Of a stretch of 33,817 bases of DNA, positions 1 through 5,104 are shown in pieces. The notes beneath the pieces were generated by a model. It had not been told where the DNA came from. It made no database searches and worked only from the letters and a program-made list of their open reading frames with translations. How positions within the stretch are numbered: position 1 is the stretch's first letter; each line of letters starts with the position of its first letter. Source of the stretch: Fidelibacterota bacterium (lineage in GTDB: Bacteria > Fidelibacterota > Marinisomatia > SCGC-AAA003-L08 > D37C17); the NCBI GenBank assembly GCA_030747125.1, contig JASLLI010000010.1, forward strand, positions 1 through 33,817. The letters run 5' to 3'. Both the position numbers and the translations under genes were made by a program.

Positions 1-1329
1 TCTCTGGAAAAGACACAAATAGATATTGAAGAACGCATCCAGAAGGCAGTGGCTGTTACTCAGGATGAAAATAAACAAATGAAGGGTACGGTTAATTCAT
101 TAAGAGATAAACTGGAAGAAACCCAGATTGGACAGGAGGAAGAAATCCAAAGGGCTGTAGCTTTGGTGAATGATGAAAATGTTCAGCTAAAGGATACTGT
201 GAATAATCTCCGCGATACTTTGGAAAAAACACAGATAGACATTGAGGAGCGCATCCAAAAGTCTGTTTCGGGGGTCAATGATGTGAATAAACAGTTAAAA
301 GGTACGGTAAACTCCCTCCGTGATGAACTGGAAAAAACACAAATTGGCCGTGAGGAGGAAATCCAGAAATCGGTTGCAAGGGTGAATGATGAAAATACTC
401 AGCTGAAAGATACAGTGAACAATCTTCGTGATTCTTTAGAAAAAACCCAGATAGATATTGAGGAACGCATCCAGTCAGCTGTATCCTTTACACATGACGA
501 AAATAAACAGCTTAGAACCACAGTGTCTGCTGTTCGTGATGAATTAGAAAAAACCCAGATCGGTCGTGAGGAGGAAATCCAGAAAGCTGTTGCCAGAGTA
601 AATGATGAAAATATGCAGCTGAAAGACACGGTAAACAATTTACGGGATACATTGGAGAAAACTCAAATTGATATTGAGGAGAGAATTCAACGGTCAGTAA
701 CTGTCACCAATGATGTAAACAAGCAGTTGAAAGATACCATCAACTCCCTGCGTAATGAACTGGAGAAAACCCAAATCGGCAGGGAAGAGGAAGTACAAAA
801 AGCAGTATCTCTGGTGAACGATGAGAACATTCAGCTGAAAGATACAGTGAATAATTTGCGGGATACCTTAGAAAAAACGCAAATAGATATTGAAGACCGT
901 ATTCAGCATTCTGTATCCCGGGCCAATGATGAAAATAAACAGCTGAAAGGTACGGTGAATTCCTTGAGAGATGAATTGGAAAAAACACAGATTGGAGAAG
1001 AAGAACACATCCAAAAGGCTGTAGCTGTAGTGAATGATGAAAATAAACAGTTAAAAGATGCAGTCAATAATTTGAGAGAGACCCTGGAAAAAACTCAAAT
1101 AGATATTGATGAACGCATTCAGAAATCCGTTGCATCGGTGAATGATGTGAACTTGCAGTTGAAAAGCACTATCACCTCCCTGAGAGAGCGTATTGAAAGA
1201 AAAGAAGCACAACGGCAGGATGAATTACAATCTGCTGCGAAATCCAAACGGGATGAGCATCAAGAATTAATGGAAACCATTGAAAAATTACGAGAAAAGT
1301 TAGAGGAACAAAATGGCGACAAAGACTAA
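1..1329 (+). CDS. Long coiled-coil repeat protein (5' end outside window)
   Basis: The reading frame is open from the first base, so this is the C-terminal 442 or so residues of a longer protein; the GTG at 49 is only an internal valine codon. Nearly all of it is a tandem array of 36-residue units that alternate between an A type (LEKTQIDIEERIQ...) and a B type (LEKTQIGREEEIQ...), ending in a degenerate unit and a charged tail (LEEQNGDKD). No cysteine, aromatic core, signal peptide or membrane segment is seen in this part. Hydrophobic positions follow a mixed heptad/hendecad spacing, so a long, nearly straight helical rod is expected. It overlaps the start of the adenylate cyclase gene by 17 nt, implying translational coupling and a structural or scaffolding role beside that sensor. 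Function is not known; the N-terminal domain that could define it is missing. Confidence 0.85.
   Translation, partial: SLEKTQIDIEERIQKAVAVTQDENKQMKGTVNSLRDKLEETQIGQEEEIQRAVALVNDENVQLKDTVNNLRDTLEKTQIDIEERIQKSVSGVNDVNKQLKGTVNSLRDELEKTQIGREEEIQKSVARVNDENTQLKDTVNNLRDSLEKTQIDIEERIQSAVSFTHDENKQLRTTVSAVRDELEKTQIGREEEIQKAVARVNDENMQLKDTVNNLRDTLEKTQIDIEERIQRSVTVTNDVNKQLKDTINSLRNELEKTQIGREEEVQKAVSLVNDENIQLKDTVNNLRDTLEKTQIDIEDRIQHSVSRANDENKQLKGTVNSLRDELEKTQIGEEEHIQKAVAVVNDENKQLKDAVNNLRETLEKTQIDIDERIQKSVASVNDVNLQLKSTITSLRERIERKEAQRQDELQSAAKSKRDEHQELMETIEKLREKLEEQNGDKD
4..1299 (+). repeat. 108-bp (36-codon) tandem coding repeat, 11 clear units plus one degenerate
   Basis: Units begin at about 4, 112, 220, 328, 436, 544, 652, 760, 868, 976 and 1084, with a degenerate twelfth unit at 1192-1299. 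A and B unit types alternate, giving a 216-bp (72-codon) super-repeat. The protein is strongly conserved between units, while synonymous codons differ freely: the LEKTQ segment is written with ctg/ttg/tta, aaa/aag, aca/acc/act/acg and caa/cag in different copies. This indicates an old array kept by selection on the protein rather than a recent DNA expansion. Confidence 0.9.
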
Positions 1330-3568
1330 ATCCATAAAAGAAAAAAATGGACAATATTCCGAATTGTTACTACAGGTAAACAATGATCTGGCAGTAACAG
1401 AAACCCTTGATCAGGCATTGGAGGCATTGGTTGGGATTACCACTTCCATAATTAAATGCGAAAGGGGAACCATTTTTCTCAATGACCCCAAATCTGAAGA
1501 ATTGTATTCCAGAGTTGCTCAAGGGAATTTCATGCGGGAAATCCGCTTTATGAATACCAAAGGGGTAGCCGGCTGGTCTTACACTAATGAGAAAGGGGTG
1601 ATTGTACATGATGCCTACAAGGATGATCGCTTTAATAAGAATGTGGATATCAGAACAGGATTTCGAACCAAGTCCATCCTGTGTACGCCGCTGCGGACTG
1701 TGTCTGGTAAACGCATTGGTGTTTCTCAATTGCTGAACAAAACCGACGGGCAATTTCAAGATTCTGATTTGGATTTGCTGGAAGCCATGACAGCACAGGC
1801 GGCCATTGCCATTCAGTCTCATGTCGCTCTTGAACAAATGGATCAGGCACGGCAGAAAGAATTGGAGTTTATGGATCTTGTATCAGAAATTTCATCAGAA
1901 TTGGAACTCACCTCACTCCTGTCCAAGATTATTGCCACCATTACCACCATGCTGGATGCAGAACGATCCTCGCTGTTTATCAATGATGAAAAGACTGGGG
2001 AATTGTTTACCATGGTTGGTGAAGGGCTCTCTCAGGAACTACGCTTCCCCAATCACATGGGAATTGCAGGACATGTATTTACTTCCGGAGAAACTGTGAA
2101 TATTCCCCATGCCTATGCTGATTTGCGGTTCAATCCCGGTGTGGATAAACAAACAGGCTTTTTCACTCGGTCTATGCTCTGTGCCCCTGTTACAAATAAA
2201 GATGGAAAAATTATTGGTGTGAGCCAGGTGTTAAATAAGCAGGGCGGAGCCTTTACTCCTGAGGATGTATCCCGCTTGACCGCTTTTACTTCTCAAATAT
2301 CTATTGGTATTGAGAACGCTTCCCTGTTTGATAATATTCAGGGACTTATGAATTACAATGAAAGCATGCTGAACTCCATGTCAAACGGTGTTATTACCAT
2401 TAATGAAGACGGGCTTATTGAAAAGTGTAACCCTGCAGGTGTTAAAATCATGAAAATGGAATCTGAAAATGAGATCATTAAACAGGAGTTCAAGAAATTT
2501 TTCGTAGGGAAGAATAAATGGATCGTTGAGAAGTTGACGAAAGTTGAGGAAACGGAATTTATCGCTGATGCCGAACTGGAATTTGGCGGTGAAAAAATTT
2601 CCACCAACCTCACCATTATGCCATTGACGGGGAGTGAGAATGAATCCCTGGGCAGTCTACTTATGATTGAGGATATCAGTAGTGAAAAACGAATGAAATC
2701 CACCATGTCCCGCTATATGGATGCAGATTTGGCTGATCAGTTATTGGCAGGTGGTGAAGGTGATGATGTTATGGGTGGAAAGGAAAGTATAGGCACGGTA
2801 TTATTCTCAGATATCAGAAGTTTCACTACCTTAACCGAAAGTTTAGGGGCACAGGGTACAGTTGGATTTTTAAACGACTATTTTTCCGTTATGGTTGACT
2901 GTATCCAGGATGAAGGCGGCATGCTCGATAAATTTATCGGAGATGCTATCATGGCAATATTTGGTACTCCAGTTGCACATGATGATGACCCGGACAGAGG
3001 GTTACGGGCTGCTATACAAATGATGCATGGATTAAATGAATTTAATGCAGTAAGAAAACAGAAGGGTATGCCCCCGGTTGATCATGGTATGGGACTAAAC
3101 ACAGATGAAATTGTATCAGGAAATATTGGCTCGCCAAAACGAATGGACTACACTGTTATCGGAGACGGGGTGAACTTGGCTGCTCGTGTGGAAAGTTCTT
3201 GCAAAAAGTATGGGGCTCATATTCTGATGAGTGAATATACATTTCATGCCCTAAAAGCCACCTATAGAACACGACAAGTAGATTGTGTTATAGTAAAAGG
3301 GAAAACTGAACCTGTCAAGGTATATGAAGTATTGGATTATCATTCTAAAGAAACATTCCCTAATATGATTGAAGTACTGGAAATGTTCAATAACGGAATG
3401 GAATATTATAATGAAGGAAATTGGGATAAAGCCATTGCCCAGTTTACAAAGGCACAGAAAGGTAACCCGGATGATAAGTGTTCAAACATGTATGTGGAAC
3501 GCTGTGAAATTCTTAAAAAGCGGAATCCAAAAGATTGGGACGGTGTTTGGGTAGCCACTTCTAAATAA
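1313..3568 (+). CDS. GAF-GAF-PAS class III adenylate cyclase
   Basis: Predicted cytoplasmic sensor enzyme making cAMP from ATP. Domains in order: two GAF domains (about residues 28-170 and 195-340), a PAS domain (about 352-455), a class III cyclase domain (about 480-665), and a C-terminal TPR-like tail ending PKDWDGVW. The two metal-binding aspartates are D500 (LFSDIRSFT) and D544 (DKFIGDAIMAIFG); the lysine in LDKF suits adenine recognition, and the transition-state Asn/Arg pair is in VNLAARVES. No membrane segment is seen. The usual GINTGE motif reads GLNTDE here. The start lies inside the end of the upstream coiled-coil gene, with AGAGG about six bases before ATG. TPR genes follow directly, so sensor, rod and TPR adaptors may act together. 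The GAF/PAS ligand cannot be told from the sequence. Confidence 0.93.
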   Translation: MATKTKSIKEKNGQYSELLLQVNNDLAVTETLDQALEALVGITTSIIKCERGTIFLNDPKSEELYSRVAQGNFMREIRFMNTKGVAGWSYTNEKGVIVHDAYKDDRFNKNVDIRTGFRTKSILCTPLRTVSGKRIGVSQLLNKTDGQFQDSDLDLLEAMTAQAAIAIQSHVALEQMDQARQKELEFMDLVSEISSELELTSLLSKIIATITTMLDAERSSLFINDEKTGELFTMVGEGLSQELRFPNHMGIAGHVFTSGETVNIPHAYADLRFNPGVDKQTGFFTRSMLCAPVTNKDGKIIGVSQVLNKQGGAFTPEDVSRLTAFTSQISIGIENASLFDNIQGLMNYNESMLNSMSNGVITINEDGLIEKCNPAGVKIMKMESENEIIKQEFKKFFVGKNKWIVEKLTKVEETEFIADAELEFGGEKISTNLTIMPLTGSENESLGSLLMIEDISSEKRMKSTMSRYMDADLADQLLAGGEGDDVMGGKESIGTVLFSDIRSFTTLTESLGAQGTVGFLNDYFSVMVDCIQDEGGMLDKFIGDAIMAIFGTPVAHDDDPDRGLRAAIQMMHGLNEFNAVRKQKGMPPVDHGMGLNTDEIVSGNIGSPKRMDYTVIGDGVNLAARVESSCKKYGAHILMSEYTFHALKATYRTRQVDCVIVKGKTEPVKVYEVLDYHSKETFPNMIEVLEMFNNGMEYYNEGNWDKAIAQFTKAQKGNPDDKCSNMYVERCEILKKRNPKDWDGVWVATSK

Positions 3569-3589: not shown

Positions 3590-4402
3590 ATGTCAAACGC
3601 ACTTGAACATTTAGAAAAAGCCATTGAGATTCATCCGGATTTTGCCGATGCACATTATGAATTGGCATTAATCTTAAAGGATAAAAAGGATAATGAAAAA
3701 TCCAAAGAGCATTTTCTAAAAACTATTGAAATTCGACCTGAATTTGCACAAGCTCATTTCCATTTTGCTCTTCTGTTAAAGGATATGAAAGAGTTTGATG
3801 CTTCCAAGGAGCATTATCTCAAAGCTATTGATTTAGATCAGCATTTTGCAGATGCCCATTTTCATTTTGGTCTTCTTTTGGCAGATTTGGAAGATTATGA
3901 GGAAGCAAAAAATAATCTGGAAAAAGCGACGGATATTGATCAGAACCATACCCTTGCCTATTATCATCTTGCCAGACTTCTCATTGATCCTGAGGACTAT
4001 GAAAAAGCAAAGAAAAATTACCTTACAGCAATTGATATAGATGAGAGCTTTGCAGATGCCCATTATTATCTGGGCAAGTTAGTGGCAGGAGGATTAAAAA
4101 ATGATAAGGATGGAACTCTGGTTAAAAAACCTGAATATGACAATGCCATAACCCATTATAAAAAAGCCATTAGCATTAATAAGAATTATGCTAAAGCCCA
4201 TTATAATCTGGCTCTTATGTTTAAAATTCAAAAGCAATATGACGATGCTCGCACGCATTTCGAAACAGCTATATCCATCGTGAATGATTATTCAAAAGCA
4301 CACTTTCATTTGGCTATGCTGCTGAAAGAAACTGGATCAGTCTGGTCAAATACGGAGGGTAAGAAATCAAAAAAGAAAACCGCACCGGCTGAAGGAGCAT
4401 AA
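3590..4402 (+). CDS. TPR repeat protein (N-terminal part of a possible split gene)
   Basis: A 270-residue protein built of about seven tetratricopeptide repeats with typical helix A/helix B signatures such as FADAHYELALILKDKKD and KAHYNLALMF; no signal peptide or catalytic domain. The ATG is preceded by AAAGGTAAAGGA and lies 21 nt after the cyclase gene, so the genes are probably co-transcribed. One repeat near residues 163-180 carries a loop insertion between its two helices. The protein ends in a Lys/Ala/Pro-rich tail (KKSKKKTAPAEGA) placed after helix A of a repeat whose helix B is found in the next reading frame segment, beyond the TAA. A protein-binding scaffold role is inferred; the partner is unknown. 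Confidence 0.85.
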   Translation: MSNALEHLEKAIEIHPDFADAHYELALILKDKKDNEKSKEHFLKTIEIRPEFAQAHFHFALLLKDMKEFDASKEHYLKAIDLDQHFADAHFHFGLLLADLEDYEEAKNNLEKATDIDQNHTLAYYHLARLLIDPEDYEKAKKNYLTAIDIDESFADAHYYLGKLVAGGLKNDKDGTLVKKPEYDNAITHYKKAISINKNYAKAHYNLALMFKIQKQYDDARTHFETAISIVNDYSKAHFHLAMLLKETGSVWSNTEGKKSKKKTAPAEGA

Positions 4403-4408
4403 AACTCA

Positions 4409-5104
4409 TTGGATGCACTGAAGGCACACTTTCTGAAAGCATTGGAAGCAGATCCGGACTTTCCTGATGCGCATTTTGAATTAGGAATCATATATTTCGA
4501 GTCGAATGAATTGAAGGATGCAGTCAGCCATTTTCAATCAGCAATTGAGGGGCATTCTTCCGAAGCAAAGCGGTTGGTAAAAAGAGGCGAAGAGCTGCTA
4601 AAAAAATCACAGTTCCAACATGCAAAAGATCAGTTTCTTAAATCTCAGCAGCAGAAGGACAGTTGCGCATCAGCCTGGTATCATTTATCAAAAGTATTTA
4701 ACAAGAGGGGTAAAATTGACAAGGCTGTTGAATCTCTGGAGAATAGTATAGAGAATAATGCCACCACCAATGCACACCGTGATTTGGGAATATTGCTGCT
4801 GAAGGTGAACAAACCTGATGATGCCCGTTTCCATCTAGAGAAAGCCATTGGGCTAGATTATGGAGATTCATTAACCCATTTCTATCTGGGCATTGCTTTA
4901 GAAAGAGACAAGGATACTGCAGAGGCAGAACAGCATTATTTAGCAGCTTTGGATATTAACCCCATGTTCACAGATTGTCTGATAAATCTGGCAAAATTAC
5001 AGCATTCTCTGGGGAAGTCTGAAGAAGCAAATGCTACATTATCTAAGGCTCGGAACTTAGATCAGAAACGGGTTGATAAGGAACTAAAGAAATTACCCAT
5101 ATAA
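4409..5104 (+). CDS. TPR repeat protein (possible continuation of the preceding gene)
   Basis: About 231 residues of TPR repeats starting from an inferred TTG. An AAGGAG sequence at 4392-4397, eleven bases upstream, could serve reinitiation. The frame is the same as that of the preceding TPR gene, with only TAA-AAC-TCA between them, and the first residues (LDALKAHFLKALEADPDF) form a helix B whose helix A lies before the stop. It therefore is either a coupled second cistron or the other half of one TPR protein interrupted by a stop. Later repeats such as AWYHLSKVFNKRGKIDKAV and THFYLGIALERDKDTAEAE are intact. Function unknown; scaffolding next to the cyclase is inferred. Confidence 0.75.
   Translation: MDALKAHFLKALEADPDFPDAHFELGIIYFESNELKDAVSHFQSAIEGHSSEAKRLVKRGEELLKKSQFQHAKDQFLKSQQQKDSCASAWYHLSKVFNKRGKIDKAVESLENSIENNATTNAHRDLGILLLKVNKPDDARFHLEKAIGLDYGDSLTHFYLGIALERDKDTAEAEQHYLAALDINPMFTDCLINLAKLQHSLGKSEEANATLSKARNLDQKRVDKELKKLPI

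What the first reader, a model, noticed from the sequence alone, without database searches (positions are those of the whole stretch)
1..1299. Alternating 36-residue A/B repeats with an 18-residue, 3.6-residues-per-turn coiled-coil pattern
Core positions within each unit (about 1, 5, 8, 12, 16, 19, 23, 26, 30, 33) have spacings that sum to two heptads plus two hendecads per 36 residues, i.e. ten helical turns in 36 residues. That predicts an almost untwisted rod rather than a normal left-handed coiled coil. The A/B alternation mainly swaps residues 7-8 (DI versus G plus polar) and the position-18 region, giving a 72-residue period of about 11 nm. Synonymous codons have diverged while the protein has not, so the exact period seems to matter.
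Basis: partly seen in the sequence, partly recalled or inferred. Interest (0 to 1): 0.52.

Follow-up and report, generated by a model that had tools for sequence, protein, structure and literature searches.

The report
Near-straight coiled-coil rod beside a cyclase
Bacteria of two phyla carry, just before a gene for a signal-making enzyme, a gene for a long rod-shaped protein built from repeats of exactly 36 amino acids, whose number varies widely while their length never does, which makes it a good candidate for a scaffold of that enzyme.

Summary
Window 1-1329 is the 3' part of a rod gene; its 5' part lies on another contig of the same Neomarinimicrobiota genome, sharing an exact 77-base end. 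Joined: 1085 aa, cap to cap 29 x 36 residues. Hydrophobic residues recur every 3.600 residues; 3.5 and 3.667 are empty.

The rod always precedes, and in 39 of 41 loci its stop codon overlaps a possible start of, a GAF-GAF-PAS-class III cyclase. Rod and cyclase occur in the same Neomarinimicrobiota genomes (13 and 14 of 245) and in 29 of 223 genomes of an order containing an 'Opitutia' MAG. Unit number varies (3 to 29), unit length does not: 37 of 38 cap-to-cap distances are multiples of 36, the exception crossing an N gap; in rods kept out of the profile, 481 of 484 slots are in phase. The A/B (72-residue) alternation recurs in 24 of 25 long rods. AlphaFold2 gives one unbroken helix.

Best reading: a nearly untwisted parallel coiled-coil rod, co-translated with and probably scaffolding the cyclase. 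Scaffolding is inferred.

The parts
1..1329 (+). 3' part of the rod gene (442 codons plus stop), open at the contig start; the 5' part is L005:6100-8103 on contig C73
1..77 (+). exact 77-base end shared with contig C73, which joins the two halves of the gene
76..1155 (+). ten 36-residue units, alternating B and A types
   Evidence: unit positions, types
1156..1263 (+). last full 36-residue unit, of neither A nor B type
1264..1326 (+). C-terminal cap: partial unit with the L..TI..LR.KLE motif found at the end of the relatives
1313..1329 (+). 17-base overlap of the rod's 3' end with the candidate cyclase start (translational coupling inferred)
1313..3568 (+). GAF-GAF-PAS-class III nucleotide cyclase, 751 aa, catalytic motifs conserved
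3590..4402 (+). TPR protein, next gene of the module
4409..5104 (+). second TPR protein

Best explanation
The protein is a cytoplasmic, all-helical rod: a parallel, probably two-stranded coiled coil of 36-residue units, each two heptads plus two hendecads (18 residues in five turns, twice), so that the hydrophobic stripe runs almost straight along the helix and the rod is nearly untwisted (calculated pitch about 65 nm left-handed, against about 15 nm for heptads; about 5.35 nm per unit, about 160 nm for this protein). It is made together with the GAF-GAF-PAS cyclase encoded downstream and most likely serves as its scaffold or tether: a stiff track with equivalent sites every 36 or 72 residues, on which cyclase dimers, TPR proteins and, in Neomarinimicrobiota, the orphan protein X are arranged. 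Length is tuned by gain and loss of whole units. Shown: unit length, period, helix prediction, operon, co-occurrence, unit-wise length change. Inferred: parallel dimer, straightness, physical contact with the cyclase, scaffolding.
For: Period 3.600 with nothing at 3.5 or 3.667. 133 of 134 unit spacings equal 36, the other crossing an X gap; 37 of 38 cap-to-cap distances are multiples of 36; 481 of 484 slots in phase in rods kept out of the profile. One helix 2-248, mean pLDDT 83.8 in the best model. Acid-to-base pairs at i to i+5 exceed base-to-acid 3.9-fold in eight Neomarinimicrobiota rods and 2.1-fold in the 'V' rods, as expected of g-e' pairs in parallel coiled coils (the rule is recalled). 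Rod and cyclase occur in the same genomes (29 of 29 loci), with a candidate overlapping start in 39 of 41. Cyclase motifs FSD, DKFIGD and D.TVIGDGVN..(A/S)R are kept in all rows that have letters there. cNMP-binding domain proteins, possible effectors, are present in 5 of 5 genomes searched.
Against: No contact between rod and cyclase is shown; no fusion of the two was seen in the loci read. Length varies about tenfold (3 to 29 units), which argues against a fixed ruler distance. Three of the ten stripe positions are polar or variable. AlphaFold2 was run on a monomer only, two of its five models scored low (54.6, 42.8) and pTM is 0.32. Protein X is not seen upstream of the Verrucomicrobiota-side rods read and is not found in G245, so it is not an essential partner everywhere. 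The N-terminal unit is no more conserved than inner units (0.316 against about 0.32-0.34), which gives no support for a special head contact.
Confidence: 0.5

Rival explanations
1. A cytoskeletal filament former: the rods assemble laterally and end to end, and the fixed 36/72-residue phase keeps staggered neighbours in register. The cyclase is a regulated client or a regulator rather than the thing being arranged.
For: Long low-complexity rods with a strict axial period; 72-residue super-period in 24 of 25 rods with at least 10 inner units; the long FilP/Scy rods of Streptomyces are hendecad-rich proteins of a cell-division/polarity assembly (PMC9858780, passages). A crude charge score gives its best antiparallel staggers near multiples of 72 for G003 (59/69, 131/141) and at 70 for V_G304.
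Against: Short relatives with only 3-6 units exist beside an intact cyclase, too short for a classic filament protein; the charge score is crude and untested against a null.
Confidence: 0.25
2. A plain spacer: only stiffness and length matter, and the 36-residue phase persists because units are gained and lost by recombination in whole copies and small indels break the stripe.
For: At least 15 changes in unit number on the cyclase tree over 35 rods, all whole units; divergent surfaces in the V rods.
Against: Surface residues are kept far beyond need: R at column 10 in 99-100% of units, Q at column 25 in 87-93%, E at 34 in 70-90%, in both groups. Half-unit (18-residue) shifts would keep the stripe but are not seen in 134 spacings and appear at 1 of 484 slots, though such mutations may simply be rare.
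Confidence: 0.18
3. A long amphipathic helix lying on a membrane; a 3.6 period keeps the apolar face straight on a flat sheet.
For: 3.600 period; Pfam similarity to ApoO and, weakly, apolipoprotein models.
Against: Narrow apolar stripe, net negative charge (-1.3 per 36 residues in G003) and an i to i+5 acid-base pattern typical of coiled coils; the same Pfam scan also hits many unrelated coiled-coil families.
Confidence: 0.04
4. On the A/B alternation alone: it is only a trace of duplication in 72-residue blocks and has no function.
For: Alternating columns differ between lineages (correlation of column profiles 0.18, -0.01 and 0.13), as expected if alternation arose or was overwritten separately.
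Against: It persists in V rods whose neighbouring units are often only 21-35% alike, and the unit number is odd in all 22 V rods (L018 included) with 15-23 units measured cap to cap, as in genus g1 (9, 25, 29).
Confidence: 0.4

Closest known systems
FilP / Scy (Streptomyces coiled-coil rods)
   Same: Very long cytoplasmic coiled-coil rods (Scy over 1000 residues) rich in non-heptad periodicity (PMC9858780, passages read)
   Different: They carry an N-terminal DivIVA-like motif and a hendecad-rich rod in Gram-positive bacteria; here no DivIVA match reaches the cut-off, each unit is two heptads plus two hendecads with an exact 36-residue phase, and the gene sits with a cyclase
18/5 coiled-coil periodicity
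   Same: 18 residues over 5 turns is described as a stutter spread over two heptads (PMC4786415, passages read)
   Different: There it is a local accommodation; here it fills the whole protein, up to 29 units
Anabaena CyaB1/CyaB2-type tandem-GAF adenylyl cyclases
   Same: Two N-terminal GAF domains and a class III catalytic domain (CyaB2: abstract of PMC4411481 seen in the listing); PDB 1ykd matched at 1.2e-33 (that 1ykd is CyaB2 is recalled)
   Different: I know of no rod gene upstream of the Anabaena enzymes (recalled, not searched)
SF-assemblin / giardin, tropomyosin, myosin rods (recalled, not searched)
   Same: Long coiled coils with a strict axial sequence repeat used for lateral register
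   Different: Eukaryotic, other repeat lengths (29, about 40, 28 residues; recalled)

Membership tests
FilP/Scy/DivIVA-like | N-terminal DivIVA domain motif | tested here: not met
   PF05103 scores 19.0 bits against a cut-off of 28 on the 941-aa rod, at residues 259-311, not at the N terminus
FilP/Scy/DivIVA-like | long non-heptad coiled-coil rod | tested here: met
   period 3.600 over the rods
Intermediate filament family (PF00038) | consistent match to the rod model | tested here: inconclusive
   47.3 bits (cut-off 40) on the 941-aa rod but 19.6 on the window part; ApoO, Rab11-FIP3 and axonemal dynein models also pass their cut-offs on that rod, so the match is to coiled coil as such
Coiled coil of 18/5 periodicity | hydrophobic positions at 3.6 residues per turn, continuous helix | tested here: met
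Coiled coil of 18/5 periodicity | helices packed into an oligomer | not testable with these tools
   only single chains can be predicted here; the i to i+5 charge pattern is indirect
Tandem-GAF class III nucleotide cyclase | two GAF domains plus cyclase domain | tested here: met
   GAF twice, PAS, Guanylate_cyc PF00211 5.9e-21
Tandem-GAF class III nucleotide cyclase | catalytic motifs (metal Asp, Lys, Asp, Asn, Arg; assignment recalled) | tested here: met
   kept in 42 of 42 (FSD) and in 41 of 42 (DKFIGD; D.TVIGDGVN..(A/S)R), one row having a gap
Tandem-GAF class III nucleotide cyclase | cAMP (or cGMP) synthesis and GAF ligand | not testable with these tools
   needs enzyme assay

The most novel reading that the evidence does not exclude
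A new bacterial signalling skeleton: a nearly untwisted coiled-coil track with a strict 36/72-residue (5.4/10.7 nm) lattice that carries tandem-GAF cyclases and TPR proteins in fixed spacing, spread across two phyla, with its length set by the number of units.
Probability: 0.25. Interest if true: 0.75.

Novelty: new variant of a known kind. Interest (0 to 1): 0.52.

Why it matters
Natural coiled coils usually mix periodicities; a whole protein family locked to 18 residues in five turns, with strongly diverged units and no off-phase net length change seen, is a clean natural test of what sets coiled-coil twist and of whether axial phase itself is selected. Its tie to one cyclase type in two phyla suggests a structural layer of cyclic-nucleotide signalling that the searches made here did not find described.

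Tried and rejected
Tried without result. Rod in plasmids (no match at 1e-20) and in viral contigs (117 pattern matches, none a relative). Protein X against PDB (best E 0.057) and Pfam (nothing near a cut-off); AlphaFold2 of X from two sequences was poor (pLDDT 41.8), so no fold search was run. Long single helices match any helix, so no fold search was run for the rod either. Papers: five searches were empty or nearly so for this rod or system (1 paper; 31: 0; 32: 0; 74: 1; 77: 64 at three of four terms, the 8 listed not about this system); some searches gave background only (listings seen). 'Not described' therefore rests, in an open-access library only.

Considered and rejected. Mis-binning of L018: the cyclase occurs in 29 of 223 genomes of that order, so the Opitutia label is not a stray contig. 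Assembly artefact as the cause of the 36 phase: collapse of near-identical units could fake whole-unit lengths in genus g1, but not in V rods whose neighbouring units are often only 21-35% alike. Special terminal caps: N-terminal units are not better conserved than inner ones; the C-terminal value (0.444) covers only the better-conserved half of a unit, so it is not a fair comparison. A shared origin of A/B alternation in all lineages: alternating columns do not correlate.

Weak points. dN/dS is saturated. The unit profile was built from the Neomarinimicrobiota rods plus L018; the held-out test uses the other 28 V rods, which are related to each other. In one search the G444 distance is partial because its N cap was missed by the pattern, G263 has no upstream end and G398/G324 had no N-cap match; 38 of 41 rods were countable. 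The Fitch count used the unit numbers of 35 of 41 rods, typed in. The regular expressions for caps were written after seeing the sequences. TPR genes downstream were seen in Neomarinimicrobiota loci and in L018, not looked for in the other V loci.

Full report
Observation. Window 1-1329 is one open frame without a start on this contig. The same genome (G000, 107 contigs) holds the upstream part on contig C73: a frame starting with ATG at L005:6100 and running off the contig end. The last 77 bases of C73 equal window 1-77, the sort of overlap a de Bruijn assembler with k = 77 leaves (inference). Joined, the protein has 1085 aa, 29 x 36 residues from N cap to C cap. It is a minimum, because near-identical units may have been dropped.

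Repeat geometry. A profile of the 36-residue unit placed units at spacing 36 in 133 of 134 intervals over 14 sequences (13 proteins), the odd one crossing an X gap in G046. The hydrophobic spectrum peaks at 3.600 in the window, the C73 part, G003 and L018 and between 3.596 and 3.602 in most others; the two exceptions are the short G173 (3.618) and the gapped G046 (3.612). Power at 3.5 and 11/3 is near zero in the long rods. The stripe is 2, 6, 9, 13, (17), 20, 24, 27/28, 31, (35) in my numbering, which reads as heptads 6-12 and 24-30 and hendecads 13-23 and 31-41. [quoted passage not shown] the pitch of about 65 nm is my arithmetic. PMC4786415 names 18 residues over 5 turns as a stutter spread over two heptads.

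A/B types. Units alternate strictly in the window, and from the fourth unit to the last full unit but one in the two G000 parts and G003. Even-lag identity exceeds odd-lag identity at p < 0.05 (unit-order permutation) in 24 of 25 rods with at least ten inner units; G014 is the exception. Alternating columns differ between lineages. Third codon positions are 45% identical against 85% at second positions for same-type units, so the units are old and under purifying selection.

Neighbours. Downstream, overlapping by 17 bases, is a GAF-GAF-PAS-class III cyclase (PDB relatives), then two TPR proteins. Upstream in Neomarinimicrobiota is X (about 201-251 aa), an orphan family with a conserved core (YIKxRxxWxGxQRxxQ) and a C-terminal DWYxxW motif. 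In 245 genomes of the phylum, X is found in 12, the rod in 13 and the cyclase in 14. The difference is explained by contig ends: G189's contig starts inside the rod, G005's inside the cyclase. No rod was found without the cyclase at the thresholds used.

Other phylum. A genome scan found the rod and cyclase in a MAG titled Opitutia bacterium (L018). In 223 genomes of the order of that MAG, 29 have the cyclase, and all 29 have a rod directly before it. All unit spacings there are multiples of 36. A sample of 288 genomes of that phylum gave 5. On a cyclase tree neither group is monophyletic, so transfer between phyla is likely; this was not tested further. Protein X was not found in G245, an empty answer that alone shows little.

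Phase is conserved, number is not. Of 41 rods, 38 had both caps at least 72 residues apart; 37 distances are exact multiples of 36, and one (G046) spans a run of N. Unit numbers range from 3 to 29 (a value of 2 for G444 is partial). In the 28 V rods not used for the profile, 481 of 484 slots score best at offset 0, one at 18. Neighbouring units of many of these rods are only about 21-35% identical. By contrast the cyclase core of the same loci has 21 distinct gap spans, and 680 of 820 pairs differ by at least one indel. At least 15 changes in unit number are needed on the tree. Selection against small indels that break the stripe explains most of this; the near-absence of half-unit shifts hints that the 36-residue surface pattern matters too, but such shifts may be rare for mutational reasons.

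Surface. Arg10 (99-100%), Gln25 (87-93%) and Glu34 (70-90%) are kept in both groups. Acid-base pairs at i to i+5 exceed the reverse 3.9-fold and 2.1-fold, which suggests a parallel in-register dimer.

Structure. AlphaFold2 on the last 252 residues with four relatives gives one helix, 2-248, pLDDT 83.8, pTM 0.32; two of five models scored under 55. A single-chain model cannot show twist or partner.

Function. Shown: a predicted helical rod with an exact phase, co-inherited and closely coupled with a cyclase that keeps its catalytic motifs, in genomes that have cNMP-binding proteins. Inferred: it scaffolds or tethers the cyclase. Rivals are a filament former and a plain spacer. The known kinds nearest to it are long bacterial coiled-coil rods (FilP/Scy) and 18/5 coiled coils; it fails the DivIVA membership test. 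I score it a new variant of a known kind, interest 0.52.

Noticed in passing
L005:5401-6099; relatives in L016, L017, L034, L036-L043: Orphan family X directly upstream of the rod: coiled-coil-like N part, small conserved domain (YIKxRxxWxGxQRxxQ) and a C-terminal DWYxxW tail; no Pfam or PDB match.
   Followed up: partly
L046:4162-5091 (same region in L017): The 309-322 aa coiled-coil gene upstream of X in G000 and G003 is split into two frames (201 and 105 aa) in G001, a possible frameshift or assembly error.
   Followed up: no
L005:3-239, minus strand: Lysine/alanine/proline-rich ORF with AAPKK repeats, resembling histone H1-like tails (recalled).
   Followed up: no
L018 and L074 (G263), rod C terminus: The rods of this lineage end in an extra basic tail (KRKR...RRKR) absent from the other rods read.
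   Followed up: no
V rods, column 35 of the unit: Column 35 is mostly Ile in the V rods but mostly Asn in Neomarinimicrobiota: a core position switched between polar and apolar across the units of a lineage.
   Followed up: no
L043 and L041, inside the rod: Both genomes have runs of N inside the rod array, showing that unit numbers from short-read assemblies are uncertain.
   Followed up: partly
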